Shown one piece after another: positions 5,632 through 64,000 of a stretch of DNA of 64,000 bases; within the stretch, counting starts at the first letter, position 1, and each line of letters begins with the position of its first letter. Both the position numbers and the translations under genes were made by a program. This DNA is from Sporosarcina ureae (GTDB lineage: Bacteria; Bacillota; Bacilli; Bacillales_A; Planococcaceae). Under the pieces are notes generated by a model. That model saw only the letters and a program-made list of their open reading frames with translations, ran no database searches and had not been told where the DNA came from. The stretch covers positions 1 to 64,000 of the forward strand of contig NZ_JARIEA010000073.1 of NCBI RefSeq assembly GCF_029267015.1, in the 5' to 3' direction.

Positions 5632-5634
5632 CTT

Positions 5635-10015: not shown

Positions 10016-10065
10016 TAAAATCACCTCTCACAATTCATGGTTATATGTGCCTGTATAAATATGTT

Positions 10066-10095
10066 ATTATAGAAAAATGAAATTTAAAAAAACAA
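10066..10095 (-). promoter_or_regulatory. Putative promoter of the defence operon
   Basis: On the minus strand a perfect TATAAT (10066-10071) is preceded 18 nt upstream by TTGTTT, a weak -35. It lies ~50 nt before the first gene of the operon in very AT-rich DNA. No operator-like palindrome was noticed. Confidence 0.45.
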
Positions 10096-10271
10096 AATTT
10101 ATGTATTTTTCTACTTAAGATCTATTTAGTTAAGTGATTATTAATACATATATTATGCTAAATTTCAATAAAAATACTCTTAAATCATATCTTCAGATTT
10201 GCTATATATTTTACTTTAATTTTAAATATTGTATGGTAGTTTCTAACATTATTCTTAGCAACTAATCTTTC

Positions 10272-10422
10272 TACTGGATAAAATACACTACCCTGCCACA
10301 CACACTAATCAGCACTGACCACAATCGGCTACCACTTTTTCATCAGTCCATATTCCCTACAACACATCCACCTTTACGATAATTATCCAGATCAGCATCA
10401 TATCCGTAATCTCCACACCCAT
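10272..10422 (-). pseudogene. Decayed phage holin (copy of 39698-39934)
   Basis: Reading the minus strand from ATG 10420-10422 gives GVEITDMMLIWIIIVKV, then, after a stop, GLMKKW(stop)PIV and ...GSVFYP. These match, in order, EITDMVVVPVIIGLV, GLPKKWCPIV and GVVYVFP of the intact holin at 39.7 kb. Several stops and a shift break it. It follows the remnant of the same neighbour gene as at the intact locus. Confidence 0.75.
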
Positions 10423-10432
10423 CTCTTGTCTA

Positions 10433-10672
10433 TTATCGAGCACGATAAATTAAACGCTTCTCTGCTTCCGCATGCTCTACATACTCCGAAAACGCGAGGA
10501 CTTTCGGCATTAACCAATCCGCTACGACCCGTCTCACGGAATTTTTTGGCTAAGTAAGTAGTACGCGTCTGCTAGTGATTTACTAAGGTAAAATGCAATC
10601 CAAACAGGTCGTTTGGATTCCACCACGAATAATTTAAATTTAAGGACATGTTTTGTTTGCAAATCGCCTTCA
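10433..10672 (-). pseudogene. Decayed copy of the 154-aa phage protein at 39953-40417
   Basis: In one minus-strand frame I read KLFVVESKRPVWIAFYLSKS followed by LADAYYLLSQ. The intact protein has KLFVVESKQPNWYAFYLSKK followed by EADAYRL. After frameshifts it continues FRETG and LMPKVLAFSEYVEHAEAEKRL, matching LMPNLLTFAES...VYVGHVEAGKRL. The N-terminal third is missing or unrecognisable. The match fixes the origin of this stretch as a second, older copy of the prophage module. Confidence 0.8.
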
Positions 10673-10919
10673 GAAGTGACGCATATTGGAAATCAGAACG
10701 AAGGCATCTCAGCCTAAAGCGATGTATGCGATAGCTCTCGTTTTCATTCTCTTCTAGAAAGTTCTCATATTGTAATCGGTACAATACTGATTTCTCTTTC
10801 ACATATCTCGCAAAGATATTCAACTTCCGCTGCAGGGTAGATCCTTCTCCAAGATCGTAAACGTCTTCTACAGGATACAGCTTATCTCCAGATGCTTGGA
10901 GCGCTTCGAATAAATCCAT
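10572..10919 (-). CDS. 115-aa ORF, probably a chimeric remnant
   Basis: The ORF starts MDLFEALQAS and has no convincing ribosome-binding site (GACGGGCT before ATG). Its last ~30 residues are an out-of-frame reading of the decayed phage gene at 10433-10672. The first ~85 residues look protein-like (helical, charged) and may be the stump of another phage gene that ran into the remnant. I recognise no family. It is probably not a functional gene. Confidence 0.25.
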   Translation of the reverse strand: MDLFEALQASGDKLYPVEDVYDLGEGSTLQRKLNIFARYVKEKSVLYRLQYENFLEENENESYRIHRFRLRCLRSDFQYASLLKAICKQNMSLNLNYSWWNPNDLFGLHFTLVNH

Positions 10920-11483
10920 AGCCCGTCGCTAGTTCTCTGTTAGTTATAAAGGTTTATCGTGAATTCTGAGAGAACTTTCGGTCACGCCGAATTTTAATTT
11001 AGATAGTTGTTTTTCATGAGTAAAAGAGTGAGATCCAAATTTTTAGGTTGGAGAAGTCGTTTTCCAAGAAATTAGTTGGTGTCATTTGGTTGGTTCGTTC
11101 CTTCTTTCCTTCTTTCTTAAAGGTAACTTCTTCAACATATTCATACTTTTTCATTTGAATAATTACCATTTTCCATTACAAGTATTCTTTATTTATAATT
11201 AATTAGCTTTTCGTTCGCATTGCGACCGCAGGAGCTCACTTTCTTCTTAATAGATCCTTCATTTCTTAGCTTGTACATATTTGATTCACTTGTTGTCTTG
11301 GTTTGATCAGCAGCGTTTCAGAAAGACAATCACCGCAGTAATAAATGCTTGTGCTATAAATGAAATCTCTTACCACTTGGGAATTTGACAGGAATCACTT
11401 GTCTTCTTTAAAAGAATACCAGGTCGTGATAGCATTCTGAATAATGTTGTGACTTGATGCTTCAAATCATGAAATATTGTTTC
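10920..11483. other. Intergenic stretch without recognisable genes
   Basis: No ORF with a ribosome-binding site and no strong hairpin was found. The sequence is moderately AT-rich with short T/C runs and may be further decayed phage DNA, but no match could be made by eye. Confidence 0.5.
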
Positions 11484-12734
11484 TTAATATCTCTCATAAT
11501 AGCCGTTATCTGACCGCACCTCCACAGTACTGCGTCCATAACTTGACTGAACGTCAAACCTATATTTATTGTACGTATACATTTCTCCGCTCTTCTCATC
11601 TCGACTTCTTGCTTCTGACTGGGAGATGAACTGTATGTAAACTGGCTTATAATATGAATAATTACGAATCAAGATCTGCTTCACTTCGTCTTGTGTTAAC
11701 TCAAAATTTCGTTTGCCGATTCGTGTGTACGTCATATCGTGAATCTTCCATTTTTCTGTTTCCTTTTTAAATATATAATCAACGAAGACTCCACCTGATA
11801 CTGGTCCATCTGAATCAAGCAAAATCGTGTTGACTATCAACGTGTCTTTGCTTGATTGCGAATAATTAAGACGAACAGACAACTCCGATATATAATAAGG
11901 AAAGAATGACGTATCACATTCAAAGCACACATACTTATAGTCCGGTTTCATTTGTATGTCTGTGAATCTCGCAGTGGCATAAGGTAGTAATTGTGAACGT
12001 ATTTCACTGAACTTTTTATCTGCCAAAAATCCCCTAATCATTACGCCTTCTACTTCAGCTGGCATGCGATTCAAAAGATCTAGCACTTGCTCTCTGCTAA
12101 CCGTTCCAGATTCGACAGGTGTGACACCAACTTCCAGCGCACGGCTTAAAAATTCCGCATAATGCGCACGCGTAACAGGACGGTTTGGATGAAACTTACC
12201 GTTATTGCCATATGCTACGCCATTTGCCAGTAAAGCATTTGCGTGGACAAAGCCCCAATGATCCATATACATATCATGGAAACCACCTGTCCATTCATCC
12301 AAACGAAAACGGAACGCTAAATCTAGAATTTTTGCCATTTGAATCCGAGTTATTGGTGCATTCGGATTGAATTTCTGATTCAATCCGCCGCTCACGATTC
12401 CAGCTTGTGTTAGATTCATGATTGGCTGATAGTATGGGAGGTTCAGTGGTACATCTTTATAGATCAGCTTCTTACTTGCTTTTGGCAGTTTCAGTGCCTT
12501 GTCGAGCAGTGACGCGACATGTTTACGGCTGATCGGCTCATTCGGTCGGAATTTGCCGTCGGGATAGCCGCTGATAAATCCTTTCTTCTCCATTTCTTGA
12601 ATCGCTGCATAGTTGGGATGCTTCTTCGGTACATCTTTGAACTCTTTTGCGGATGCCTGTCCTATGTTTATGAAAGTAATGGATAAGATGAATAGCATTG
12701 TAGTACAAAGAATAGTTTGCAGTAGTTTTTTCAA
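11484..12734 (-). CDS. Secreted protein with three SLH domains and unknown C-terminal domain
   Basis: A cell-surface protein of 416 residues from the TTG start. AAGGAGTGAGG precedes TTG, which gives MKKLLQTILCTTMLFILS, a classic signal peptide; the longer ATG start in the ORF track would bury it. Three SLH repeats follow, each with the ...G(Y/N)PDGKFRPNEPISR pattern: FISGYPDGKFRPNEPISRKH, IVSGGLNQKFNPNAPITR and VAYGNNGKFHPNRPVTRAH. They anchor the protein to secondary wall polymer. The ~200-residue C-terminal part has a mixed, possibly NTF2-like profile (SGGVFVDYIFKKETEKWKIHD). It is a more distant paralogue of the two other SLH proteins here and lacks their upstream motif. Confidence 0.85.
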   Translation of the reverse strand: MKKLLQTILCTTMLFILSITFINIGQASAKEFKDVPKKHPNYAAIQEMEKKGFISGYPDGKFRPNEPISRKHVASLLDKALKLPKASKKLIYKDVPLNLPYYQPIMNLTQAGIVSGGLNQKFNPNAPITRIQMAKILDLAFRFRLDEWTGGFHDMYMDHWGFVHANALLANGVAYGNNGKFHPNRPVTRAHYAEFLSRALEVGVTPVESGTVSREQVLDLLNRMPAEVEGVMIRGFLADKKFSEIRSQLLPYATARFTDIQMKPDYKYVCFECDTSFFPYYISELSVRLNYSQSSKDTLIVNTILLDSDGPVSGGVFVDYIFKKETEKWKIHDMTYTRIGKRNFELTQDEVKQILIRNYSYYKPVYIQFISQSEARSRDEKSGEMYTYNKYRFDVQSSYGRSTVEVRSDNGYYERY

Positions 12735-12921
12735 GACCTCACTCCTTGTAAAATTTTGTTTAATTATTAAACTCATATGAAAAACACTGGCACATTAAAC
12801 CTTGATTTGTATTAGAACTTTGTTCCTGAAATTTGCACTCACCTTAAATGCTAAAAATGATTCTTTGTGTATAATTAGATCTCTTCAATGTAATTAATAT
12901 ATTAATGTTATTTTTAACCTT

Positions 12922-13179
12922 CTATTGTAGATATACATAGGTCAGTATTATGAAGAGCACGGTAATAAGAAGTATAATATTAAACCTTCTCTTGTTCATA
13001 GGTTCTTTAACTTTCAAAAAATCATATCCACAGTACCTACATGATTTGGCAAATGTTCCTGCTTCTTTATGACATCGTGGACAATTATCACCTACATTTA
13101 CAGGAAGTACAGCACTACACTTCTTGCAATCTCTTATGCCTACTAGATTGTAAGTATTGCACTTATTGCAATTTGGCAT
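12922..13179 (-). CDS. Small zinc-ribbon protein with one C-terminal membrane segment
   Basis: 85 residues with four CxxC-type knuckles (CNKC, CKKC, CPRC, CRYC), forming two zinc ribbons in residues 4-55. A single hydrophobic helix (FNIILLITVLFIILTYVYL) ends the chain. AAGGAGGG lies 6 nt before the ATG. It is probably a membrane-tethered zinc-ribbon protein facing the cytoplasm. The function is unknown. It stands alone, between an SLH gene and decayed lipoprotein genes. Confidence 0.7.
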   Translation of the reverse strand: MPNCNKCNTYNLVGIRDCKKCSAVLPVNVGDNCPRCHKEAGTFAKSCRYCGYDFLKVKEPMNKRRFNIILLITVLFIILTYVYLQ

Positions 13180-13604
13180 ATCCTACCCTCCTTCTACAAA
13201 TAGTAATTCAAGATTTTTTTATGATTATTCACCAATACACTTAAATATAATAAACAAATTAAAAATAGGATTCTAAGGATGAAACATACTTAAAAATACT
13301 ATTTGCGTTCATCTCTTCTCTCAAGAACTATGTTTTACAAGAAGAATTTGCAAAATCCCGCAATTGTAATTATATAATATTCCAACTAAACATAGAGCCT
13401 CCGCGAGGATGAGTAACAAGCCATAAATCCAGAGATACTAAGGTCTGGATTTGCCTGCGAAAGCTATTATCCACACCACTTCAAGTAAAGTTGCAACGCC
13501 GAGTTGGCTTGCAAAACTACGTACTTTCATTTTGCACTATACAAAACATATCAAACATGCTTTTTTCATTATATATTTTGTTACTCTGCATCCTCAGACT
13601 TACC
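13180..13604. other. Intergenic stretch with one hairpin
   Basis: A 9-bp perfect inverted repeat AAATCCAGA/TCTGGATTT (13425-13452) could be an old terminator for the decayed gene upstream of it on the minus strand, but there is no T-run. The 60-aa plus-strand ORF here has no ribosome-binding site and is not supported. Confidence 0.4.
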
Positions 13605-14224
13605 CTAATCCTCAATGTCCTTCAGGTAGTTAACTGTACCAATTCTTTCACCAGAAGCCGCATTCACTGAATGTATTGTCACGTCCAACTTGTCAGAAGT
13701 TACTCTATCAAACAGTTGATAAAACATACCCGTCATACCTAAACCTAGTATAACGAATCCGTCGAAACTGCTCTCGAGTCGTTCTCTTGATCAACAACCA
13801 TTGAAAATTCTTGTCTTAGGTAATATCTTTGATAGAAGAAAACTCTTTATGCTGCCTAAATCATCCGTATATTCAATGATGTTTTTTTCATCTCCGTCAT
13901 TAATTCTTGATTCTTTGCTTTAGACATTTTATACGTGATCGTATCATCTGAATTTACAGTCGCACTCTTCATTTCACTTCCTTCTGCGTTTACTGCTACT
14001 TCGTTTAGCTCTTCATCATGGGAAGAAAGATTTCGGTACGGTTATTTCAACCTCTAGCAAACCTTTATCTACCGCCACTATTCTACTCGTATCTCCTGAG
14101 TTTTTTACTTCATACACTTTTTCACTTTGCTCTTTATTGCCATTCTTCTCTTTATCTTACAAACAGCAAGCTATGAAAATCAGCAAAGATAATACTAGAG
14201 TAAGTAGGCCCTTCTCATTTTCAC
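13605..14224 (-). pseudogene. Decayed lipoprotein gene
   Basis: On the minus strand the broken reading frame gives a signal-peptide start (MRRAYLL...LSLLIFIAC), then EQSEKVYEVKNSGDTSRIVA, LLEVEITVPKSFFP, a stop, DEELNEVAVNAEGSEMKSAT and DTITYKMSKAKNQELMTEMK. The C-terminal end reads TIHSVNAASGERIGTV. Multiple frameshifts and stops break it. It resembles secreted lipoproteins of Bacillales that I cannot name. The downstream position relative to the next decayed lipoprotein suggests a former two-gene operon. Confidence 0.7.
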
Positions 14225-14265
14225 ATCCCGTTTTAAAATCACCAGTGCCAGTTATATGACTTAAC

Positions 14266-15254
14266 CTACATTTCAGTGACCTTGCCTTTAATATCCTTAG
14301 GGAAGTTAGGATAGAAAATCTCAAAATCTGCTGTATTGTTCGGATTCAGACTTACTTGTAAGCTCTCTTTTAAGACAGCTACTAATTTCCCTTCACTATC
14401 ATAAAGACCGGCAGCCAACCGAATATCGTCTACCAATTCTTTATTCGTATTATCTACCGCATTCCACATTGCGCTATCACCGAGAAATGCTGTTTCGCTA
14501 GGTGAAAGTACATTAGGAACAGGTGTGCTCATATCTGAAGTGCCCACTATTGACCCACTATCGTCAACAAAGTTAACTTGTGCAGAACCTAATTCTGCAA
14601 TTGCGTCGCCAGTATTCTCTATTTCTTCGCTATAGTTTGCCAAAATGATACTTATGCTATCTTTCCAAAAATGTACCACTTGATCTACTACTTCGATACT
14701 AGCTTGCTACGCAACTTCTTTTTCTTTTCTTTAAACTAGTTCCTTTGGAATTGGTGCTTTGAAGTTATCTCTAAGCTTGTTGAAGATTTCAGTATTAGTC
14801 CTTCATACTCAGGACTAATACTGTAGATCAATTTAAGAACTTCATCTTCTTTTCAAAAGCCAATATAACTTTACGAAGATGCCTTTCTGTATTTTCTACA
14901 TTAAGTAGTACAACCTTCCCTTTGGTTCCATCATCATTAATAATAGCTGAGCTTTCAATCACTCTTATATTTTGACTGTCATTTACTCATTTCTAATGAA
15001 TTAATCATTTCTTCATAGTATGCTCTTTCATCACTATGGACATTTTCATCAAGAAACATTTCTTGCTCTCCTTCATTCCCCTTAACAAAGAGACTATAAA
15101 ACTCCAAAGAAAATTTTTCCCTCCCGATTTAAATTTATTTTTTCTGAGGTATCTAGATTCTTAGCTTTTACTCAATTCGTTGACGTTGTTTCTTTGGCTT
15201 CTCCACAACCCAATAACAATGAGATAGACTTGCAGTTACAATTAGAGTTTTTCT
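14266..15254 (-). pseudogene. Decayed lipoprotein with FxLYD-like C-terminal domain
   Basis: AAAGGT precedes ATG 15254, which begins MRKTLIVTASL. A frameshift leads to LLLGCGEAKE, a lipobox with its cysteine. More stops and shifts follow. The last 137 codons are open (the ORF in the track) and contain ENTGDAIAELGSAQVNFVDD and AGLYDSEGKLVAVLKESLQV, the pattern of FxLYD domains of cell-surface proteins. No ribosome site precedes the 137-aa ORF. It is best read as the intact tail of a dead gene. Confidence 0.65.
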
Positions 15255-15571
15255 CATTACCTTTTCCTCACCCTCTTTTTTTTCATTTTACATGAATTTA
15301 TTTAACATAACAGGATTTTTGTACTAGTTAATAGATTTATGTTAATTATCTCATTAAAAAAACATTTTATGATAATAAAGCATATTAAAATTTAGATACT
15401 AGTGTAAATAGATTCATTATTTTTAATGCACACAAAGTCCATATCATGATTATCTCCTAAACAAAAGTACCTGACCCTTAAAATATATTAAATGAATCAC
15501 GATCTGGTACATTTATAATTTTTATTTTTTCTAAAACATAACTGTCCTTCACTTAAAGCTTTTATACTCAT
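15255..15571. other. AT-rich intergenic stretch
   Basis: Very AT-rich, without a supported ORF or strong hairpin. It separates the dead lipoprotein gene from the terminator of the SLH gene at 15663. Confidence 0.5.
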
Positions 15572-15627
15572 AAAAAGAAGCGCCAAGCCCCAACACTATG
15601 CTGAATTGTGTCGGGACCTGGCACCCT
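15572..15627 (-). terminator. Rho-independent terminator of the 15663 SLH gene, within a repeat motif
   Basis: On the minus strand GTGCCAGGTCCCGACAC pairs with GTGTTGGGGCTTGGCGC, using several G-U pairs, and CTTCTTTTTATG follows. The arm GTGTCGGGACCTGGCACCC is repeated just after, as GTGTCGGAATCTGGCACCC (15639-15657). A related phrase recurs at 31031-31048 beside the third SLH gene. Confidence 0.65.
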
Positions 15628-52408: not shown

Positions 52409-52464
52409 AACATCCACCCTTTCACTTGTTAATCGCATAGAGCTTGTACAACAATCTGAACCCG

Positions 52465-52773
52465 TTAACGGATAATCGGAGCAATAATTAACAGTATTAT
52501 AGAGCTTGAAATTAGAATGGTGCTAATTATTCTTGGTAGTTTTACTTTTTGGTCGCCTTTATAAAATCCAGAGAACTGAAGCTTGTTTCTATACAAAACA
52601 AAAAGAATAATTAGAATGGATATCCCTACTAGCCAAGCACCATTAGTATCATCTACGTTTATTCCAAAACTTGCATAGATTAAGTTCACTAGTCCACCTA
52701 ATAAACCTCCAATAATTAATAATATAATTGCAATTCGAATCAATTCCAAGCCTGCTCCCAATCCTTTTTTCAT
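52465..52773 (-). CDS. Small membrane protein (102 aa)
   Basis: AAGGGGTG precedes the ATG. Helices: IRIAIILLIIGGLLGGLVNL, AWLVGISILIILFVLY and a C-terminal IISTILISSSIILLIIAPII. A soluble loop with KLQFSGFYKGDQKVKLPR separates the last two. The family is not recognised. It sits among other short, possibly transferred membrane genes. Confidence 0.6.
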   Translation of the reverse strand: MKKGLGAGLELIRIAIILLIIGGLLGGLVNLIYASFGINVDDTNGAWLVGISILIILFVLYRNKLQFSGFYKGDQKVKLPRIISTILISSSIILLIIAPIIR

Positions 52774-52879
52774 TTATTCACCCCTTACAATATATAATTC
52801 CTTTTAAGCATCTTATTTCTCAAAATGGCACGTTAACAGTGTAATTTTTACTAAACAACGGCCCCCTAATCTTGAATTG

Positions 52880-54123: not shown

Positions 54124-56343
54124 TTATTGATGACGCAAAATAAATCGTAATTTCTTCAACCCTTTTTTCGATTTCTTCACCGCCACATAAACTCGCGCAA
54201 ATAACTTTTCTACCTCTGTGCGTTCTTCATTGGTCACATTATGCGGACTATATTTGGCTTTTTGATAAATTTTCAAACTGTCTTCTGTGTCTTGTCGTAG
54301 TTGCGGATCAATTCCCCCAACTGCGTCAGGTATAGTTTCAAATGAAGGCAGTTTCGCAACAACTTGTTCTTTTTCTAACATTTGCACCATGAGCTGGACA
54401 TGGTTCACAACCGCTACTCGATGATCTTTCACATGGAGTTTGTTTTGTCGTTTTCTCTTTCTTAAGACGTATAATACAATCAGGATGAATAGAATCACGA
54501 CGATGAGCATATTCAACCAGAACCACAACACCGTGTTTGGATTCACTTGCTTTGCATCTTCTGGTTTGTCCTGATCTTGCTGCACTTCCGTCGTATCATT
54601 CGGTTCGGGTTCCGCTGTACTTCCACCGGTGACATCCGGTGAATCAGCACCCGAAGCTGGATAGTCTTTTTTATTGATTTCCGGCATTTTCTCAGCATAC
54701 CCCGGTGTCACTTCAATCGGTACCCAACCGACCATATCGACGTAGATTTCCGTCCACGCATGAGCATTTTTCTCGCTGACATTGATTTCACTGAATGACT
54801 GTAGATCTTTCACGTCATCCATCCCGACGATATAGCCTTCCGCATAACGCGCAGGTGTGCCGAGCATTCTGAATGCTAATGTCGCGATCGTTGCGTAGTG
54901 AACGGAGTAGCCTTCTTTTGACTCTTCCAATATACCCGTCACAAAATCCTGATCATGTATCGGTTCGGCACGTTCGTTATAACTCATCGACTGTGCCAAG
55001 AAACGTTCCACTTCTTGAATCGTTTGTTCATATGGTAAACGTCTTTCTGAATCGAGTACGCTCTCGTCCAAATGGTTACGCAACACATTTAAGCTATCTT
55101 GCGGCACAGTAAGATATTCATTGTAGACGTATTGATTGTAATGACTTTCACGACGTAAATAGTCGGTGTCTTTTGTTGCATACAACGCATTCGCGATTTG
55201 CGGATAATCGGTGTACGGCGTCAACATATAGTTCATTTCCACTATGCGTCTGCCGAATATCCCTGTCGCATGCAGCGCGTCTGCTTGTTTCGTACGGATA
55301 ATGTTTGTATCGATCCCAGCCAACTCATACGGCGCATAAATATATCGACTGGATGCACCGACATTTTGAATGACGAGTTTCGCCTCTTCGTACTCCTCTG
55401 GCAAACTGCTTTTCGCAGCCAAACTCAGCTGTTTCGCTCCGGTGAAATCTTCTTTCTCTAGCGCTTCAAGCAATGACTTCTCTTTCCTATATGCGTCGCC
55501 CTCGATTTCCTTCCAGCCAACCGGTGTGTAAGTCGAACCGACGAATCCTTTCAAATACAGTGGACTCGGATTTTCCATCGCGACTTTTAACGCAGTATGG
55601 TCGTCCGGTGTAAACGTAGATAGCCGATGGAAGTTTCCGCCTGTCAGAACAGGTGCGCCGCCTTTAAAATAGCGGAACTTCTCACCTTGGTAACGTATAG
55701 TGTCTTCCCATTTCGAACTGCCCGTGAATTCTCCATTGCCGTTTTGATTAATTGCCGTATAAGCAAACATCAGCACGATCAATGAAATAGGTAAGATCGC
55801 CATCCGTTTCCACCAACGCAATGAAAGATGATTCATATACAGCAGTGTCAAAATCAATACTGCGAAAAACAAAATATCCAGCATCAATGATGGAGACGTG
55901 CCTAGAAGTACTTGAATCGACCAAATCACAAGTGCAAGCGTCACGACGATCCAACGTTTTTGATTAACAATCGCATAATAAATGGCACTGCCGACTAATA
56001 AAGCGATTTGACCGAGGATCATACCGTTCAGCCAGGAGTCTGTTTCATTTACAGACAATACATCCAAATATAAATGCTTGCGCTCTGCAAGCGTTACAAA
56101 CAAGGCGTTAATCGTCCGCTTCACGTCATCCACGTACTTCGATAGGAAGAGTAAGCTGAAGACGACACTCGCGATTAATACGACGTCACCGCCACGTTGT
56201 TTCCACTGAATGCGCGCGACCATCCACAGCAACACGAGCACTAGCGCGGGAACGATATGAATTTCCGGAAACAACATCGCACGGATTACAAGGAAGGCTG
56301 ACACTAGCACACTATACGCTACTACTCCATTGATCCATTTCAT
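54124..56343 (-). CDS. yebA: Transglutaminase-like membrane protein, catalytic Cys replaced by Ser
   Basis: 739 residues of the TgpA/YebA type. Five or more N-terminal helices, a ~400-residue extracellular part, a transglutaminase-core domain at about 470-560, then a Thr/Glu/Pro linker, one helix (LWFWLNMLIVVILFILIVLY) and a cytoplasmic DUF4129-like tail. In the core, EGYSVHYATIATLAFRMLGT has Ser (codon TCC) where catalytic members have Cys. The His motif NAHAWTEIYVDMVGWVPIEV is kept, but the Asp position reads Glu. The domain is therefore probably inactive as a transglutaminase or protease. The start overlaps the DUF58 stop by ATGA. It is the last gene of the MoxR-DUF58-TGase unit. Confidence 0.88.
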   Translation of the reverse strand: MKWINGVVAYSVLVSAFLVIRAMLFPEIHIVPALVLVLLWMVARIQWKQRGGDVVLIASVVFSLLFLSKYVDDVKRTINALFVTLAERKHLYLDVLSVNETDSWLNGMILGQIALLVGSAIYYAIVNQKRWIVVTLALVIWSIQVLLGTSPSLMLDILFFAVLILTLLYMNHLSLRWWKRMAILPISLIVLMFAYTAINQNGNGEFTGSSKWEDTIRYQGEKFRYFKGGAPVLTGGNFHRLSTFTPDDHTALKVAMENPSPLYLKGFVGSTYTPVGWKEIEGDAYRKEKSLLEALEKEDFTGAKQLSLAAKSSLPEEYEEAKLVIQNVGASSRYIYAPYELAGIDTNIIRTKQADALHATGIFGRRIVEMNYMLTPYTDYPQIANALYATKDTDYLRRESHYNQYVYNEYLTVPQDSLNVLRNHLDESVLDSERRLPYEQTIQEVERFLAQSMSYNERAEPIHDQDFVTGILEESKEGYSVHYATIATLAFRMLGTPARYAEGYIVGMDDVKDLQSFSEINVSEKNAHAWTEIYVDMVGWVPIEVTPGYAEKMPEINKKDYPASGADSPDVTGGSTAEPEPNDTTEVQQDQDKPEDAKQVNPNTVLWFWLNMLIVVILFILIVLYVLRKRKRQNKLHVKDHRVAVVNHVQLMVQMLEKEQVVAKLPSFETIPDAVGGIDPQLRQDTEDSLKIYQKAKYSPHNVTNEERTEVEKLFARVYVAVKKSKKGLKKLRFILRHQ

Positions 56344-57386
56344 ACAGCGGATCCCTCCCTATTCTCCGAGATCACGATCGTTTGATATTCCGTGCTGCGC
56401 GCATTATTTGTCGTCAACACGATACAGTGTGGATACGTTTTTCTTAACCTTTTCCATTGTTCATCCGACATCGATAACGCGGATGCACTTCTTGTTAGTA
56501 CTTCTTTTATCGCCAGTGCAGCTTCATGTTCATTTTTAATCGTCAACTGCTCACTTGTTGTGTGATCTACTAGAAGCTGGACTTCATGATGGCCTGCGAC
56601 ATAGGAATACAGCAAAGCGGAAAACGTTTCGATGAATTCATCATAGAGTGCGACGCGTTTTGTAAACGACGTGAAATCAATCGTCATCATTACCGCATCC
56701 CCTATGAGCGTGTCATGCTGTTTGACGAATAGCTCATCCACTTTACTTGATAACTTCCAGTGAATTTGTTTAACTGAGTCGCCTGGTTTATAGACCGATA
56801 CGTCCGCAAGCTCTTCGCCATCGATTTTCTTCATCGGAATCGCACCTGGCGTTTGCAGTACATGCTGATTCTGCTCGATGCGTTGAAGTTTCAAGAAATA
56901 CAGATTCGGCATGATTAACATCGCGGACTGCGTATCGATCTTCTGCACTGAACGGAAGAACGCGAAACTGTCTTTGATCGTTATCTGTTTCATTCTTATC
57001 GTCACTTGTCCCATATATTTCTGTGGCAGAATGAATGCAAATTCTTCCGCACTCTTCGCGGGGATGGACAAGATGTGCTCGTGACTTTCTTGCCTGCCCG
57101 TGAATACGTGCTCGATGACGAGATGCATATGTAGTTGTGTGACGGGTAATCGACTGGTATTTTCTACGCGCAGTTGATAGCCCATCTGTTCATTCTTATA
57201 TAGTTCATTCGCTGCTATGATCTCGCAATGTAATTTTCCTTTTACGAGATAGACGCTTAACACGAGCCACAGCCAGACAATGAATGATCCGATTGCGAAC
57301 AGTAGCGCGAAATGCGTCGTCGTAAAGATGAAAAATGCGAGCGTAAACAGCAACCAGACGACGCTGATCAGTAATGTAAACACCAT
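56340..57386 (-). CDS. yeaD: DUF58 protein with two N-terminal helices
   Basis: 348 residues. Two membrane helices span ~5-50, followed by a beta domain and then the DUF58 core VYKPGDSVKQIHWKLSSKVD, with a von Willebrand A-like segment (AVMMTIDFTSF). DUF58 proteins are partners of MoxR ATPases in membrane or envelope quality control; the exact role is unclear. Coupled by ATGA to the transglutaminase-like gene, and 11 nt after the MoxR gene. Confidence 0.88.
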   Translation of the reverse strand: MVFTLLISVVWLLFTLAFFIFTTTHFALLFAIGSFIVWLWLVLSVYLVKGKLHCEIIAANELYKNEQMGYQLRVENTSRLPVTQLHMHLVIEHVFTGRQESHEHILSIPAKSAEEFAFILPQKYMGQVTIRMKQITIKDSFAFFRSVQKIDTQSAMLIMPNLYFLKLQRIEQNQHVLQTPGAIPMKKIDGEELADVSVYKPGDSVKQIHWKLSSKVDELFVKQHDTLIGDAVMMTIDFTSFTKRVALYDEFIETFSALLYSYVAGHHEVQLLVDHTTSEQLTIKNEHEAALAIKEVLTRSASALSMSDEQWKRLRKTYPHCIVLTTNNARSTEYQTIVISENREGSAV

Positions 57387-57397
57387 ACGATCAGCCC

Positions 57398-58342
57398 TTA
57401 AAATGTCGCAAGCATTGCTTGATCGGGCGTGGCAACACTTTGCAGTAGTTTTTCGAGTAGCGCATCTTGTTCTTGTTCAGCGCCTGGTACGCTCGACAGG
57501 ATAATGCGGTGTCGGCTCGTCGGTAACCACACAGCATGGACGTCTTCTGGAATGACGTAATCACGGTCTTGCATGAAGGCATGTGCTTTCGCCATCTGGC
57601 AGAGTGCGAGTGCGCCACGTGGGCTGATTCCTTGATGAATGGACGGATGGTTTCGCGTTTTCTCGGTGAGTGCCGTGACGTAACGCAAGATTTCTTCGTG
57701 AATGAAGAGATTTTGTACTTGCTGTTGAAGCGCTAATAATTCGTTTTTTGTAATGATCTGCTCGAGTGAAGATAGCGGATCGGTCTGCTGTCGATTTTTC
57801 AGCATTTCGACTTGATCCTCAAAATCAGGATATCCGACGCTTAATTTTGTCATGAAGCGATCAATTTGCGCGCTCGGTAGCGGTTGCGTTCCGATTGTGC
57901 CGTAAGGGTTTTGCGTCGCAATGACGTGAAACGGTGCGGGCAATGGATACGTCACACCGTCAACAGTTACTTGTCTTTCCTGCATCGCTTCAAGTAATGC
58001 CGCTTGTGTTCTTGAAGACGTCCGGTTGATTTCATCGCCAAGCAATAAGTTACACATGACGGCACCTTCTTTAAAGACAAATTCATTTTTTTCTTTATCG
58101 AACATCGTGAAACCGATGACGTCAGATGCCACGACGTCTGGCGTGAACTGGATACGGTTCGAATCGAGACCGACGACCCGGCTGAATGCTTTTGCCAGTG
58201 TCGTTTTCCCGACTCCCGGTAAATCTTCGAGCAGTACATGTCCTCCAGCTAGAAACGTCATCCACACTTTTTGGATGACGTCGTCTTTCCCGTTAATTAC
58301 TTTTTTCATTTCATTGAGTACGTGTGTTGATTGATTGCTCAT
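57398..58342 (-). CDS. yeaC: MoxR-family AAA+ ATPase
   Basis: 314 residues. Walker A LPGVGKTTLAKAF, Walker B LLGDEINRTSSRTQAALLEA MQE, sensor 1 VIATQNPYGTIGTQPLPSAQ and the C-terminal lid (GISPRGALALCQMAKAHAFM) are all intact. MoxR ATPases act as chaperones for VWA-domain partners such as the DUF58 protein next door. The gene begins 3 nt after the ECF ATPase stop, tying this unit to the transporter genes in one transcript. Confidence 0.92.
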   Translation of the reverse strand: MSNQSTHVLNEMKKVINGKDDVIQKVWMTFLAGGHVLLEDLPGVGKTTLAKAFSRVVGLDSNRIQFTPDVVASDVIGFTMFDKEKNEFVFKEGAVMCNLLLGDEINRTSSRTQAALLEAMQERQVTVDGVTYPLPAPFHVIATQNPYGTIGTQPLPSAQIDRFMTKLSVGYPDFEDQVEMLKNRQQTDPLSSLEQIITKNELLALQQQVQNLFIHEEILRYVTALTEKTRNHPSIHQGISPRGALALCQMAKAHAFMQDRDYVIPEDVHAVWLPTSRHRIILSSVPGAEQEQDALLEKLLQSVATPDQAMLATF

Positions 58343-58345
58343 TCG

Positions 58346-59971
58346 TCAGTTCCTCCTGTTGTTGCTGTTCACAGCGTCCACGATATCGTCCGCTGTGATA
58401 GCAAATGGAAATAATCCTCGCGCGATTTTACTCGCCGCGGTTGTATAAAATCGATTGGACGTAAAGAACGTCTTCGGGTTATTGATCGCGAGCAGTGATT
58501 TGTCGAACAACATGCCGACACGTGTAGACACTTCAGCCGCGAATTCAATATCGTGCGTTACGATGATCGTCGTGATATTACGTTTTTGCAGTGTTTGAAT
58601 CAACTGAATCACTTCTTTTTTCGACATGACGTCCATTCCTTTAGTCGGTTCATCGAGCAATAAAATAGATGGATTATGCAGCAATAATTTCGCCAATGCG
58701 ATTTTTTGCTGCTCACCGCCACTTACATCAAATGGGTTTCTCTTTGCTAACTGTTCAATTTGTAGCTGTTTCATCATATCCGTAACAGTGGATTCTCTTT
58801 GCTCTTTTGGCAACTTTTGCACAACAGCCAGCAGTTCTTCGTTCACTGTCGAGTGCATAAATAACGCTTGCGGATTTTGCGGCAATAACACGATATTGCC
58901 TTTCCACTTGGCCGGCACGACATCATCTATAAGGATCTTGCCTGCGTATGGCTTATTCAATCCCGCGAGCAACTTCAAGAACGACGACTTCCCGACCCCA
59001 TTTCCTCCGACGATTGTGAAAATCTCTCCACGGTGAATTGTCACGTTCATATCCGCAAGCAAATCATCGCTTTTACGGTTATAACGGAAATACAGATTTT
59101 TCACTGTAATGAGAGGGGGATGCTTTTTCCTCATCGGATCCATCGGCGGTACAGCGGGTGGGTAGCGCCGAATGAAGTCCATCCCTTCGCGCACAGTAAT
59201 CGGCGTGTTCTCCAGAAAACCAAGCTTATAATAAACACGCATCGCCGCAGTGAGTGCGTCAAGCATCGGATGGTCGAGTAACGAATGACCGATCAACTTC
59301 GGCGTCGAGTCGTACAGAAGCGAGCCGTTTTCCATGAATAATACGCGATCACAGACAGGCAACAATTCTTCTAGCCGGTGTTCGACAACGAGAATCGTCA
59401 TGCCGAGTTCTCGGTTGATTTTATCAAGCAACGTCAAAAACTCGGAAGCCGCGATCGGATCGAGCTGAGAAGTCGGTTCATCGAGCAATAAAATATCCGG
59501 TTCCATCGCAAGCACTGCCGCTAAATTGACGAGTTGTTTCTGCCCGCCCGATAAGTCGCTAACGCTGTCATGCAACCAGTTCTGAATGCCGAAGAAACTG
59601 GCCACTTCCGCAATTTTTCGCTGCATCTCTTCCGTCGAGACCCCCATATTCTCAAGTCCGAACGCGAGCTCTTGCCAGACTTTCTCCATGACGATCTGCC
59701 CGTCTGGATTTTGCATCATATAGCCGATCGCGGTCGCCGTCATTGTAGCCGGCAGATCATCAAGTTTTTGACCGCTGAAATACACATTACCGCTCAGTTT
59801 ACCAGTCGGTCGCATTTCCCGCTTCAACATCTTGAGTAACGTCGACTTTCCAGAGCCCGTAGGACCGAATAACATCACGAATTCCCCTGGCATAATCGAA
59901 AAAGAGACGTCACGCAAGACTTGTTGATCTTCATAAAAGAAGTTTAGATTTTCGACTGTAAGTATCGCCAT
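58346..59971 (-). CDS. ECF transporter double ATPase (fused EcfA-EcfA', YkoD-like)
   Basis: 541 residues with two complete ABC domains. The first has GPTGSGKSTLL, LSGGQKQLVNL and ILLLDEPTSQLDP; the second has GGNGVGKSSFL, VSGGEQQKIAL and ILLLDEPTKGMD. The two signatures and the YMMQNPDGQIVM and LLPQNPQALF Q-loops are typical of energy-coupling-factor transporters. This single-chain form resembles YkoD. It overlaps the T-subunit gene by 28 nt. No S component is in the window. Confidence 0.9.
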   Translation of the reverse strand: MAILTVENLNFFYEDQQVLRDVSFSIMPGEFVMLFGPTGSGKSTLLKMLKREMRPTGKLSGNVYFSGQKLDDLPATMTATAIGYMMQNPDGQIVMEKVWQELAFGLENMGVSTEEMQRKIAEVASFFGIQNWLHDSVSDLSGGQKQLVNLAAVLAMEPDILLLDEPTSQLDPIAASEFLTLLDKINRELGMTILVVEHRLEELLPVCDRVLFMENGSLLYDSTPKLIGHSLLDHPMLDALTAAMRVYYKLGFLENTPITVREGMDFIRRYPPAVPPMDPMRKKHPPLITVKNLYFRYNRKSDDLLADMNVTIHRGEIFTIVGGNGVGKSSFLKLLAGLNKPYAGKILIDDVVPAKWKGNIVLLPQNPQALFMHSTVNEELLAVVQKLPKEQRESTVTDMMKQLQIEQLAKRNPFDVSGGEQQKIALAKLLLHNPSILLLDEPTKGMDVMSKKEVIQLIQTLQKRNITTIIVTHDIEFAAEVSTRVGMLFDKSLLAINNPKTFFTSNRFYTTAASKIARGLFPFAITADDIVDAVNSNNRRN

Positions 59972-60813
59972 TTGACACTCTCCTTCGCTTCATAGATAAA
60001 CGGCAACAACATCAGTAAGCTAATAATGACATAATGTCCTGCCCCCAGTGTCTGTTCACTAATTTCCGGGTAATACTGCGTTTGGTGTTGCGTGAAGTAC
60101 CCGATATAATAGAGAAGAAATAAAACGAGTCCTGCAGTCAGCACACCGTCACGCTTCGTAAAGCGCATGACTTTATACTCTGTCCTCGCTTTCGTCATAC
60201 CATATCCACGTGCTTTCATGACGTCTGGCTTCACAAAGACGAACTCAGCCGTCTGGACAAGTGTCTGCCGCCATAAAGCGAACGCTCGATGAAATTTCAC
60301 GAATCTGCTGGAAACTTTGTAATAACCAATCCCACGCTGCGCCATTTGCTTTTCCTGCCATTTCGTTTTAAATATCGGGATGAAGCGCCATAGCATCGAA
60401 ACGAGAATACCAAGATTAGCAGACACTTTCGTCAGTACAGCAAGTATTTTATTCGTCGTGAAAATCTCGAAATAACTCTTCATCCAAAAACACGTCGCGA
60501 CAATGGCCCCCGCTAGAACGAGACCTTTCGTTACAGCTTCCCGCGTCACCGCATGGTCGTTCAGGAAAAATAAAGGAGTGAAACCGTTATGCACATACGA
60601 TGGGTACGCGACCGCAATGAATAGAAAGACGAAAAAGTAATACAATAGATCTTTACTTGCCGCCCGTACTCCGTGCAACATGGAGAAATACAGAATGCCA
60701 CCGACGAGCGAAAACGCCACGATGATCGGATGAAACGAGCTGAACATCGTGACGAGGACAACGGTCATATAGACAAGTAGCAATACAGGATGAAAGTTCG
60801 AAAATGCGCTCAT
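59944..60813 (-). CDS. ECF transporter T component (EcfT/CbiQ-like)
   Basis: 289 residues, six helices. The coupling motif VMKARGYGMTKA carries the ARG triad that contacts the ATPases in EcfT proteins; an upstream MAQRGIGYYKV segment resembles the second such motif. It should bridge the double ATPase and a substrate-binding S protein. The start overlaps the stop region of the DUF4430 gene (TAGATGA) and its end overlaps the ATPase gene. Confidence 0.88.
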   Translation of the reverse strand: MSAFSNFHPVLLLVYMTVVLVTMFSSFHPIIVAFSLVGGILYFSMLHGVRAASKDLLYYFFVFLFIAVAYPSYVHNGFTPLFFLNDHAVTREAVTKGLVLAGAIVATCFWMKSYFEIFTTNKILAVLTKVSANLGILVSMLWRFIPIFKTKWQEKQMAQRGIGYYKVSSRFVKFHRAFALWRQTLVQTAEFVFVKPDVMKARGYGMTKARTEYKVMRFTKRDGVLTAGLVLFLLYYIGYFTQHQTQYYPEISEQTLGAGHYVIISLLMLLPFIYEAKESVKWRYLQSKI

Positions 60814-61368
60814 CTAGTTTCCTTCTTTCTTTGTTTGGAGTATGTAGCCATCCAGATCCCGTCCTAGATCACATGTGTAGTGGAATTCGACTTCATCGCC
60901 GTCATGCAGTTTGTATTGACTAACCCCCTGACTCGGGAATTCGCCGTTTACTTTATACATCCAACCACTTAACGGACCGCAATTAAACTCATACAAATAG
61001 TTGATGCCTTGAACGTAAATACTGTTGTAGATATTATAGTCGGCTCCTTGGTACTCCATTGGGATGCGGTGGTGGCGAGTCGCGCGGTCGAGAAGATCAA
61101 ACGCAGTATCGCCACTGCGCAACACATATTCTGATTTCGCAAGTATTTCACCGTCTGGTTCGATATATTTCTCAAGACCAGCTTTTAACTGATCCATCGA
61201 ATCGAGAACGGTGTCACTACGTATTTCGAGCGTCACTGTCTCTGAGTCTTCAGTGATTTCGTCGACATGTGTCAAATAATATTCTTCCACCGACTGGATT
61301 TTCGTACCTGCAATGAGCCATCCGACAATAAAGAGGATGAATGCTACGACTAATAGATCTTTCTTCAT
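60814..61368 (-). CDS. Membrane-anchored DUF4430 (transcobalamin-C-like) protein
   Basis: 184 residues. An N-terminal helix (LLVVAFILFIVGWLIAGTKI) anchors the rest outside. The DUF4430 hallmark is CGPLSGWMYKVNGEFPSQGV, then YKLHDGDEVEFHYTCDLGRD. DUF4430 is the C-terminal domain of animal transcobalamin/intrinsic factor and is found in bacterial surface proteins. Next to ECF T and A genes it could pass a ligand to the importer. The ligand is inferred, not shown. Confidence 0.85.
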   Translation of the reverse strand: MKKDLLVVAFILFIVGWLIAGTKIQSVEEYYLTHVDEITEDSETVTLEIRSDTVLDSMDQLKAGLEKYIEPDGEILAKSEYVLRSGDTAFDLLDRATRHHRIPMEYQGADYNIYNSIYVQGINYLYEFNCGPLSGWMYKVNGEFPSQGVSQYKLHDGDEVEFHYTCDLGRDLDGYILQTKKEGN

Positions 61369-61377
61369 TATATCCCT

Positions 61378-63213
61378 CTAGTCTCTCTGACGCCTTCTTT
61401 TTTGTATTCTTACTAGAATTATGATGATCAATCCCGCCGCCACGATTCCAAGTAGCCATGAAATTCGCTTCGCACGAACAGCATTGTCGATTTGCGTTTT
61501 CGATTTTTTAAGATCTTCATAGTTTAAGACTTTCTCTTGATCATATGGAGCCAATGCGTTGAATCGTTCCAAAATCGCATCCACATTGTCACGGTCTTTA
61601 CTTGTCAAATCAGTGAATGGATACAGTTGATCCAGCACCGTTTCGTTAATGCTTTGTATTTCGGTTTCGATCTTTTCCATGTCTTCTTTATATCGATAGA
61701 GTTGTACAAGCTCTGCTTCATAATCGTCTTTATTGTCCGCTTGTTCGAACTGATCAATTAGCGATACGACATCGATATAGTGTTCTGTCGTAAGTGGTGT
61801 TGGAATGGCGTTGATTTTTTCTACATCTTGTTCACTGATGTTTTGTGGCGCAGTTTGCTCCTGATAAATCGGGGCAATCGTGCCGTTTCCTTTCGTATAA
61901 ACGTCGTAGTTTTCACTAAACGCAGGTAAATCAAGTTCGATCGACTGTTTCTCTGCGGCTTCTACGAGCTTATGGAAGTTGTAGACATACGAACGCTCTT
62001 CTATCGGGAAGTTTTCATATGTATCAAGTAATTGCTGAAGCTGTTTAGCGTCTGTGTTGTCATGGATGTCCTGAATGGCTTCCATCAATTCAAGCATTTG
62101 CTGCTTCATTTCGACCGGATTTTCAGGGCGGAAATCATACATCGAGCGGTAACCGTTTTCAAGGCGATAGAGTGACACGAGCGCATAGAGCACTTGCTCA
62201 GACGCCATCGAGTTTGATTCATCCGGCAAGGAAGAAGGATTGTCCGCATTATACGTTTTCGCATGGACAAACCCTCCGTCGTCCAGTTGATAGCTCATGA
62301 TGAAATCGAGCAATGAATGATTGCCTTTTAAAAAGCGTTCGTCTTCTTCGGGATGAATGCCAAGAGACGTCAACGCGACGAGAACTTGAGCGGCACTTTC
62401 GACGTTGTCGTCATTTTGCGCGCTAAAGCCGCCAGACGATGTTTGCATATCCGACAATTTTCCGAGTGCTTCGTCAATGATCGTATGCATCGTTTTCGTT
62501 ACTTCTTTATCCGCATCCTTCTGAATATACGTGAATTCTTCGGTACTTTGATAATACGGTGCGAGCGCCTGTACTGCCATCGCAGTCATATCCGGCTCCG
62601 CTTCGTCTCCGTAGAACGAAAATCCACCATCTTCGAGTTGCAGTGAAATGATTTCTTTGATGATCTCAATTCTTGTCATATCCGCGTTATCCGGCACTTT
62701 ATATCGCATGCTGTCAAGTGTAATCAGCCCCCAGATCCAGCCGTTAATGCCCTGTGCGCCGAGTGACGTCGTCAATCCACGGTTATACGTACCGTCCGCG
62801 ATCAAGTCAATATCGGAAACTGCCGTCGGGTCGCCGCCAGCTGAAAGGATCGCCAGTGAAATCCGGTGCCACTCTGTCGCTTTCATTTCACTAAGTTTTT
62901 CAGTCGTTTTATAGCGCTCGATGACATAGTTCTTGATGACCGCAAGATACGCGGAGTAATCGTCAGGATAGCCGATGCGGCCGAGGCCTACTGGATACCA
63001 ATCACCATTCGTATTTCCCGCGTGCGCTAGAAACGGCTTACTGAGCAGCGGTGCCGATTCGTCAATTTGTTCATCTTGTTTTTTCCACGCAATAATTTCT
63101 TCGATCGTGTGCAGCAGGGATTCTTCTTTTTCCGGTGTCGCGAACGCAACAGACGGCTGGAGTACTACCACCGTCATCATAATCGTCACAAGCCACGCAG
63201 TTAATTGTCGCAT
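61378..63213 (-). CDS. Surface protein with terpenoid-cyclase-fold (alpha/alpha barrel) repeats
   Basis: 611 residues with a signal peptide (LTAWLVTIMMTVVVLQPSVA). Repeats of the prenyltransferase/squalene-oxidase type follow: LQLEDGGFSFYGDEAEPDMT, QTSSGGFSAQNDDNVESAAQ and YQLDDGGFVHAKTY. The same fold makes the N-terminal domain of transcobalamin. A long helical stalk and a C-terminal helix (WLLGIVAAGLIIIILVRI) with an Arg/Lys tail fix it to the membrane. No DxDD cyclase motif is seen, so binding rather than cyclisation is likely. It lies between two DUF4430 genes (18 and 9 nt gaps). Confidence 0.85.
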   Translation of the reverse strand: MRQLTAWLVTIMMTVVVLQPSVAFATPEKEESLLHTIEEIIAWKKQDEQIDESAPLLSKPFLAHAGNTNGDWYPVGLGRIGYPDDYSAYLAVIKNYVIERYKTTEKLSEMKATEWHRISLAILSAGGDPTAVSDIDLIADGTYNRGLTTSLGAQGINGWIWGLITLDSMRYKVPDNADMTRIEIIKEIISLQLEDGGFSFYGDEAEPDMTAMAVQALAPYYQSTEEFTYIQKDADKEVTKTMHTIIDEALGKLSDMQTSSGGFSAQNDDNVESAAQVLVALTSLGIHPEEDERFLKGNHSLLDFIMSYQLDDGGFVHAKTYNADNPSSLPDESNSMASEQVLYALVSLYRLENGYRSMYDFRPENPVEMKQQMLELMEAIQDIHDNTDAKQLQQLLDTYENFPIEERSYVYNFHKLVEAAEKQSIELDLPAFSENYDVYTKGNGTIAPIYQEQTAPQNISEQDVEKINAIPTPLTTEHYIDVVSLIDQFEQADNKDDYEAELVQLYRYKEDMEKIETEIQSINETVLDQLYPFTDLTSKDRDNVDAILERFNALAPYDQEKVLNYEDLKKSKTQIDNAVRAKRISWLLGIVAAGLIIIILVRIQKRRRQRD

Positions 63214-63231
63214 TCCGTCACTTCTCTTTCG

Positions 63232-64000
63232 TTACCATTCTTTATTCCAATTATCATTCGTGCCATTTCCTGACGCTTCATGCCCACCGATGTCTTTTCC
63301 GTAATGAAGAGTATAGCGCACTCTCACTACATCTCCATCTAAGAAATAGGCATCCGAAAAGCCATAGTTCGGATAGTCATTATTGACGCTAAACATCCAG
63401 CCGGAGCCATTCGCGAAATCGAATTCACTTAGACTATCCGGTGAATACGCATCGCGATTTGAAGTAGTGGAAACTTTCTCGACTATTTCCCATAAATCGT
63501 CGGGAATCGCTACATGATTTAGCATGCCAGGCTTACTAACATCTCGTAAATAGAAACTGCTGTCGAAATTTCCCGTTTTGCCGTAATCATAGCCATGATC
63601 TCGCATAAATTGGTCGAGGATATACGACCCTTTTTCCCCTTGATGAATATCCATTTTTGTCGGTTTAATCAAATACGGAACACCAAGAACAGAAGCTTCT
63701 AGACTGATCGTCACTTGTCCGATGATGCCATCTTCTGCCGGTGCAACGGACGTGATCGTAAATTTCTCGGTCACCGTCCGCTCTTCGTCATCCCATACTT
63801 TGATGGTGACGGTGTTTTGTCCGGTCTGCAACGTCAGTTTATAACTCGTTTTTGCACTGTCATCCCAAGTGAACGGCACGTTTTCACCATTCACTTGCAC
63901 GAGAACGTTTTTCCCTCTGATTCGTTCACCAGAAGCAGTCACTGGCCAAACGTTGATCGTTTTAATATCACCTTTGACTTTGCTGCCGGACTTGAGATCG
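63232..64000 (-). CDS. DUF4430 surface protein, 5' end beyond window
   Basis: The frame is open to the window edge (DLKSGSKVKGDIKTINVWPV before the track's GTG start), so the gene is cut and the true N-terminus is missing. Visible parts are an Ig/bacterial-surface-like beta domain (GKNVLVQVNGENVPFTWDDS ... LQTGQNTVTIKVWDDEERTV) and a C-terminal DUF4430 domain (NGSGWMFSVNNDYPNYGFSD, LDGDVVRVRYTLHYGKDIGG). It ends with a low-complexity Gly/Asn/Trp tail. Same operon as the downstream ECF genes. Confidence 0.82.
   Translation of the reverse strand, partial: DLKSGSKVKGDIKTINVWPVTASGERIRGKNVLVQVNGENVPFTWDDSAKTSYKLTLQTGQNTVTIKVWDDEERTVTEKFTITSVAPAEDGIIGQVTISLEASVLGVPYLIKPTKMDIHQGEKGSYILDQFMRDHGYDYGKTGNFDSSFYLRDVSKPGMLNHVAIPDDLWEIVEKVSTTSNRDAYSPDSLSEFDFANGSGWMFSVNNDYPNYGFSDAYFLDGDVVRVRYTLHYGKDIGGHEASGNGTNDNWNKEW

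What the first reader, a model, noticed from the sequence alone, without database searches (positions are those of the whole stretch)
58346..64000. Transcobalamin-like surface proteins joined to an ECF importer
Seen: two DUF4430 proteins flank an alpha/alpha-repeat surface protein, followed by ECF T and double-A subunits in one operon. Known: animal transcobalamin and intrinsic factor combine exactly these two folds, and ECF importers take up vitamins including B12. Inference: a Gram-positive corrinoid-capture device feeding an ECF transporter. The missing S component should lie just upstream of the window.
Basis: partly seen in the sequence, partly recalled or inferred. Interest (0 to 1): 0.76.

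Follow-up and report, generated by a model that had tools for sequence, protein, structure and literature searches.

The report
Bacterial vitamin B12 capture operon
A soil bacterium carries surface proteins built like the human B12 carriers together with a vitamin importer, under a B12-sensing RNA switch; the idea was proposed in 2007, but here it has lost its own membrane binding part and kept an unexplained three-gene helper module.

Summary
The genome is a Sporosarcina near S. ureae. Two DUF4430 proteins, an alpha/alpha-toroid protein, EcfT and a double EcfA form one minus-strand operon, and the corrinoid inference is strongly supported. A cobalamin riboswitch plus terminator lies directly upstream (C59:65357-65590). 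The DUF4430 model's 17 best PDB matches are all animal B12 carriers. Relatives across Firmicutes share riboswitch, toroid, DUF4430, T, AA and S, and their S matches the solved B12 subunit CbrT (E=3e-23).

The S prediction was wrong: no S lies upstream. In relatives S follows AA; in this family the window-type operon has lost it. All 12 such genomes keep exactly one CbrT-like S, in a second riboswitch-linked locus here, so two ECF modules probably share one S.

These three are present in 15 of 15 evaluable window-type operons, twice relocated inside the operon. The transglutaminase has lost its catalytic cysteine in every copy read.

The core idea is prior art (Burroughs 2007). The linked triad and the shared S look new, so I rate it a new variant of a known kind. 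B12 binding, transport and the triad's role are untested.

The parts
63232..64000 (-). First gene of the operon: 687-aa secreted protein (window holds its last 255 codons; full gene C59:63232-65295) with signal peptide, Ig-like repeats and a C-terminal DUF4430 (transcobalamin beta-grasp) domain. Upstream, outside the window on the same contig: cobalamin riboswitch C59:65452-65590 (-) and intrinsic terminator C59:65386-65357 (-).
   Evidence: gene; RF00174, 79.8 bits; terminator, 13 pairs plus T run
61378..63213 (-). 611-aa alpha/alpha-toroid surface protein: signal peptide, toroid at residues about 64-370, coiled region, C-terminal transmembrane anchor (no LPXTG).
   Evidence: (model pLDDT 82)
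60814..61368 (-). 184-aa membrane-anchored DUF4430 protein (N-terminal TM helix plus beta-grasp domain).
   Evidence: pLDDT 91.8; top 17 PDB matches all animal B12 carriers
59944..60813 (-). EcfT, 289 aa; two XRG coupling motifs (QRG 159, ARG 201).
58346..59971 (-). EcfA-EcfA' double ATPase, 541 aa; both Walker A, Walker B and signature motifs intact.
57398..58342 (-). MoxR AAA+ ATPase, 314 aa; starts 3 bp after AA; retained in all evaluable window-type operons.
56340..57386 (-). DUF58 protein, 348 aa.
54124..56343 (-). Membrane protein with a transglutaminase-fold domain (residues 438-544), 739 aa; nucleophile Cys replaced by Ser (GYSVHYAT), Asp region reads EVTP: predicted pseudo-transglutaminase.

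Best explanation
This is a riboswitch-controlled corrinoid (B12) scavenging operon. When adenosylcobalamin is scarce, the leader reads through its terminator (inferred) and the operon is made. The membrane-anchored toroid protein (611 aa) and a beta-grasp DUF4430 protein (184 aa; perhaps also the secreted 687-aa one) clamp a corrinoid between them, as transcobalamin's two domains do (inferred from fold, operon and riboswitch). They pass it to a CbrT-type S component. That S is no longer encoded in this operon and must be supplied by the single CbrT-like gene of the second B12 locus (C61). The T-AA module here and the one at C61 would then share one S. The MoxR-DUF58-pseudo-transglutaminase triad is a conserved accessory of this operon type; its most likely role is ATP-dependent assembly or remodelling of the surface complex (weakly inferred, about 0.4). 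Estimated likelihoods: corrinoid uptake 0.9; S shared in trans 0.6; triad functionally part of the system 0.75.
For: Cobalamin riboswitch upstream of this operon and of its paralogue, with a terminator before the start codon. Same in close relatives and in distant loci: 52 of 80 have a cobalamin-riboswitch model hit before the first toroid/DUF4430 gene, with one hit in 64 on the opposite strand; Rfam finds more. DUF4430 model: 17 best PDB matches are transcobalamin, haptocorrin or intrinsic factor (TM about 0.6, rmsd about 2 A), then a clear gap. S family matches the solved CbrT (6FNP) at E 2.6e-23, next hit E 0.007 (6FNP identity from PMC5997447). The genome lacks CbiC and has cobinamide-salvage genes under a cobalamin riboswitch, as expected of a scavenger. 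12 of 12 family genomes with a window-type toroid operon have exactly one CbrT-like S elsewhere; the relic genome G018 has none. Triad in 15 of 15 evaluable window-type operons, inside the operon in two.
Against: No binding or transport data. The toroid matches terpene-cyclase and other toroids as well as or better than transcobalamin, by sequence and fold, so on its own it is not specific. No significant sequence-level match of DUF4430 to animal carriers with these profiles. S-less modules have long branches in the AA tree and Kurthia's T and AA are truncated or split, which could mean decay. In G018 the triad is intact although the transporter is a relic, so the triad may act alone. The genome also has BtuFCD, so the system may be redundant.
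Confidence: 0.85

Rival explanations
1. The ligand is mainly a corrinoid other than cobalamin, such as cobinamide or another cobamide; the same machinery acts as a broad corrinoid scavenger.
For: Genome carries CbiB, CobU and a BtuD-CbiZ fusion under a cobalamin riboswitch, a salvage set for incomplete corrinoids. CbrT binds and transports both cobalamin and cobinamide (PMC5997447).
Against: Riboswitch and fold evidence do not separate cobalamin from other corrinoids, so nothing counts against it directly.
Confidence: 0.3
2. The S-less ECF module in this lineage is vestigial, or drives something other than B12 through an unrecognised S.
For: S lost in all evaluable family members; long AA branches; decayed in Kurthia and a relic in G018; XRG motifs not recognised in several S-less T proteins.
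Against: In the window all AA and T motifs are intact and the genes are 84-89% identical and full length in Sporosarcina relatives; the riboswitch is retained; a CbrT-like S always co-occurs.
Confidence: 0.15
3. The MoxR-DUF58-transglutaminase triad is an unrelated neighbour.
For: Such triads occur in many bacteria without B12 genes (own knowledge). In G018 it stays intact beside a dead transporter.
Against: Present in 15 of 15 evaluable window-type operons across Bacilli and Clostridia, and in two it lies inside the operon between the surface-protein genes. Close MoxR orthologues (E below 1e-100) occur in only 4 of 37 genomes searched: three with the operon (the window's own among them) and the relic. 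Blautia has the triad with toroid and DUF4430 genes and no ECF genes in the fetched stretch.
Confidence: 0.22
4. A cobalt importer of the CbiMNQO kind.
For: T and AA belong to the CbiQ/CbiO superfamily; cobalamin riboswitches also control cobalt importers (PMC3766115).
Against: Relatives carry a CbrT-like S, not CbiM/CbiN; CbiC, needed for de novo corrin synthesis, is absent here; surface proteins resemble B12 carriers.
Confidence: 0.02
5. The toroid is a surface terpene cyclase or another enzyme.
For: Best sequence matches are squalene-hopene cyclases.
Against: None of 62 toroids has the catalytic DxDDT motif; the last Asp is Ile/Met/Val/Leu.
Confidence: 0.02

Closest known systems
Transcobalamin-like SLBB clade of Gram-positive surface proteins (Burroughs et al. 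2007, PMC1796856)
   Same: Same domains (beta-grasp DUF4430 plus alpha/alpha toroid), surface location, operons with CbiO- and CbiQ-like genes; B12 scavenging already proposed there.
   Different: That paper does not mention riboswitches or ECF, nor, in the passages read, an S component or the triad. Here the two folds sit on separate proteins.
ECF-CbrT of Lactobacillus delbrueckii (Santos et al. 2018, PMC5997447)
   Same: S family homologous to CbrT (E 2.6e-23); ECF module; sharing of modules and S components is known for group II ECF transporters.
   Different: Dedicated T-AA modules with fused AA and co-encoded surface receptors; here two modules appear to share one S, whereas in L. delbrueckii one module serves many S components.
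Animal transcobalamin / intrinsic factor / haptocorrin
   Same: Two-fold architecture; the DUF4430 fold matches specifically.
   Different: In the window the folds are on separate proteins; domain order is reversed in the C61 proteins; sequence similarity is insignificant.
BtuG/BtuH surface B12 lipoproteins of Bacteroides (own knowledge; PMC6143338 seen only as a search result)
   Same: Surface capture of B12 ahead of a transporter.
   Different: Bacteroides is Gram-negative and uses a TonB-dependent route; that work does not concern this toroid/DUF4430 pair.

Membership tests
Transcobalamin-like B12 scavenging operons (SLBB/DUF4430 clade) | DUF4430 beta-grasp domain with the transcobalamin beta-domain fold | tested here: met
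Transcobalamin-like B12 scavenging operons (SLBB/DUF4430 clade) | Alpha/alpha toroid partner in the same protein or operon | tested here: met
Transcobalamin-like B12 scavenging operons (SLBB/DUF4430 clade) | Operon with CbiO/CbiQ-like genes | tested here: met
Transcobalamin-like B12 scavenging operons (SLBB/DUF4430 clade) | Corrinoid binding | not testable with these tools
   needs protein
ECF transporter, B12 type (CbrT) | EcfA/EcfA' ATPases with intact motifs and EcfT | tested here: met
ECF transporter, B12 type (CbrT) | CbrT-type S component in the same operon | tested here: not met
   none in the window operon; one in trans at C61:10284-10967
ECF transporter, B12 type (CbrT) | B12-dependent regulation | tested here: met
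   RF00174 upstream with terminator; response to ligand not tested
Active transglutaminase (TgpA-like) | Cys-His-Asp catalytic triad | tested here: not met
   Cys replaced by Ser/Ala/Asp in all 14 copies in which the motif was read; His kept in 13 of them; control TGase of the same genome has the Cys
Squalene/terpene cyclase | DxDDT catalytic motif | tested here: not met
   0 of 62 toroids
CbiMNQO cobalt importer | CbiM/CbiN substrate-binding component | tested here: not met
   associated S is CbrT-like; no CbiM in the operon

The most novel reading that the evidence does not exclude
The MoxR-DUF58-pseudo-transglutaminase triad is an ATP-driven handover machine: it opens or remodels the toroid/DUF4430 clamp so that tightly bound B12 is released to CbrT, a Gram-positive counterpart of the energised release that TonB gives in Gram-negative bacteria.
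Probability: 0.15. Interest if true: 0.85.

Novelty: new variant of a known kind. Interest (0 to 1): 0.55.

Why it matters
B12 uptake in Gram-positive bacteria is incompletely known; a 2019 survey of gut genomes calls identification of B12 transporters an open problem (PMC6593275). This work joins a 2007 domain-based guess to riboswitch, fold and S-component evidence and so makes it testable. It also adds two unexpected points: one S component apparently serving two ECF modules, and a conserved helper module with a catalytically dead transglutaminase. Animal B12 carriers were proposed to descend from such proteins (PMC1796856), so bacterial homologues bear on their origin.

Tried and rejected
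Sequence search of the 611-aa protein against the PDB gave only chance or terpene-cyclase matches. Profile searches with toroids never reached transcobalamin, so toroid homology to the carriers is claimed by fold only. DUF4430 profiles reached transcobalamin-1 at E 0.48 or not at all, not used as evidence. An active cross-linking transglutaminase was considered and rejected because the Cys is missing. Cobalt import and terpene cyclase were considered and rejected. Rodionov 2009 was not held, so whether it already lists these loci is unknown. Literature searches for the triad with B12 found nothing. The riboswitch could not be judged where the start of the operon lay outside the fetched stretch (L171, L172, L176).

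Full report
Observation. The window is G000:C59:1-64000 of a 73,104-base contig. Reading beyond its edge, the cut gene is a 687-aa secreted DUF4430 protein ending at C59:65295. The nearest named relatives are Sporosarcina ureae DSM 2281 and Sporosarcina sp. P32b, 87% identical over the toroid.

Riboswitch. Rfam finds none in the window but one at C59:65452-65590, 79.8 bits against a cut-off of 31.5, followed by a strong intrinsic terminator before the start codon. It is a short form, 139 nt against 185 nt at C61. The same element precedes the operon in four close relatives.

Second locus. The genome has a second B12 locus at C61: cobalamin riboswitch (118.8 bits), two surface proteins each holding DUF4430 and toroid (one with SLH repeats), T, AA and an S component. 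The two AA proteins are 40% identical.

Breadth. From 80 named loci across Firmicutes (Paenibacillus, Bacillus-like genera, Clostridia and others), local profile searches recover toroid, DUF4430, T, AA and usually S in one run. A covariance model built from 12 riboswitches of loci found first hits before the first toroid/DUF4430 gene in 52 of 80 loci. Of 64 hits one was on the opposite strand. Rfam finds the element in three further loci of eight retested (L052, L057, L068). This is a riboswitch-linked, widely conserved system.

Folds. The DUF4430 domain (AlphaFold pLDDT 91.8, 61 sequences) matches animal B12 carriers in all of its 17 best PDB hits: E 8e-4 to 0.03, about 82 aligned residues at about 2 A. 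The next hits are a bacterial structure (3u7z) and then noise. The toroid (pLDDT 82) is a genuine alpha/alpha toroid, but transcobalamin is only one of several equally good matches. It lacks the DxDDT motif of terpene cyclases in 62 of 62 sequences. So the B12-carrier identity rests on DUF4430, riboswitch and S, not on the toroid alone.

S component. The C61 S matches chain A of 6FNP by sequence (E 2.2e-12), and the 13-member S profile matches it at E 2.6e-23, with the next hit at 0.0066. 6FNP is ECF-CbrT, shown to bind and import cobalamin and cobinamide (PMC5997447). No S lies upstream of the window operon. In relatives of the window type outside this family, S directly follows AA (L051, L052, L098, L102, L168). 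In the window's family it is absent from the window-type T-AA unit in all evaluable genomes. G616 carries a second, C61-type T-AA-S directly behind it. All 12 family genomes with a window-type toroid operon have exactly one CbrT-like S, next to another T-AA; G018, whose operon is a relic, has none. This fits one S serving two ECF modules. It is a co-occurrence, not proof.

Downstream triad. MoxR starts 3 bp after AA, then DUF58 and a transglutaminase-fold membrane protein. The triad is present in 15 of 15 window-type operons that could be read far enough: five Sporosarcina, six other family members including Kurthia, G375, Paralachnospira, Anaerosalibacter and Pseudogracilibacillus. In G375 and G616 it lies inside the operon, between the 687-type and 611-type genes, so a moved module was kept. 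Blautia MSJ-19 has it beside toroid and DUF4430 genes with no ECF genes in the fetched stretch. C61-type loci lack it. Counter-evidence: in G018 the triad is intact beside transporter fragments. In 14 of 14 copies where the motif was read, the nucleophile Cys is Ser, Ala or Asp (GY[SAD]xHYAT and close variants). The genome's other transglutaminase, at C28, keeps the Cys (GYCDNFST). It is therefore predicted to be non-catalytic.

Physiology. CbiC is absent. Other cobalamin riboswitches precede BtuF, BtuC, a BtuD-CbiZ fusion, CbiB and CobU (C65), MetE (C71) and a ribonucleotide reductase operon (C26). Four proteins carry B12-binding domains. The picture is a B12 user that scavenges.

Mechanism. 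Shown by sequence: operon, riboswitch and terminator, domain folds, intact ATPase motifs, loss of S, conservation of the triad, missing Cys. Inferred: B12-dependent termination, clamp-like binding by 611 plus 184, hand-over to the C61 S, ATP-driven release by T-AA, assembly or remodelling by the triad.

Novelty. Burroughs et al. 2007 (PMC1796856) already described these domains, their surface location and operons with CbiO/CbiQ-like genes, and proposed B12 scavenging; that text mentions neither riboswitch nor ECF. The triad, its dead transglutaminase and the shared S were not found in the literature searched, which omits most subscription papers, among them Rodionov 2009.

Noticed in passing
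window 52462-52877 and C59:66923-67337 (L005 8923-9337): A 416-bp direct repeat (94% identical), holding a 102-aa membrane protein gene, flanks the whole B12 operon on both sides.
   Followed up: partly
L169 (G018:C1:366001-383000), 7342-8692: A relic of the window operon in another Sporosarcina: fragments of all five genes in order, followed by an intact MoxR-DUF58-transglutaminase triad; this genome has no CbrT-like S.
   Followed up: yes
L101 (Blautia sp. MSJ-19) 8313-15623; L078 1-4007; L054 6192-9480: Triad genes near toroid or DUF4430 genes with no ECF genes in the fetched stretch.
   Followed up: partly
L147 (G000:C51) 12418-13984: Cobalamin riboswitch before a 458-aa ORF with only partial ribonucleotide reductase matches, possibly a remnant.
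   Followed up: partly
G000:C33:57862-58052: Strong cobalamin riboswitch (114 bits) with no same-strand ORF of 110 aa or more within the next several kb: an orphan.
   Followed up: no
L149 (G000:C65) 5329-6801: BtuD-CbiZ fusion (ABC ATPase plus adenosylcobinamide amidohydrolase) in a riboswitch-controlled BtuFCD salvage operon.
   Followed up: partly
L044 (G030:C1:2456001-2474000) 5433-9630: Third riboswitch-linked DUF4430/toroid protein (1291 aa) without ECF genes nearby.
   Followed up: no
L174 (Kurthia, G478:C3) 8046-10251: T truncated and AA split into two frames in Kurthia senegalensis: decay or sequencing error.
   Followed up: partly
alignment A3 columns 123-176 (L005 7452-7590 against L006 11202-11386): Window-type cobalamin riboswitches of Sporosarcina lack an arm of about 45 nt present in the C61-type.
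   Followed up: no
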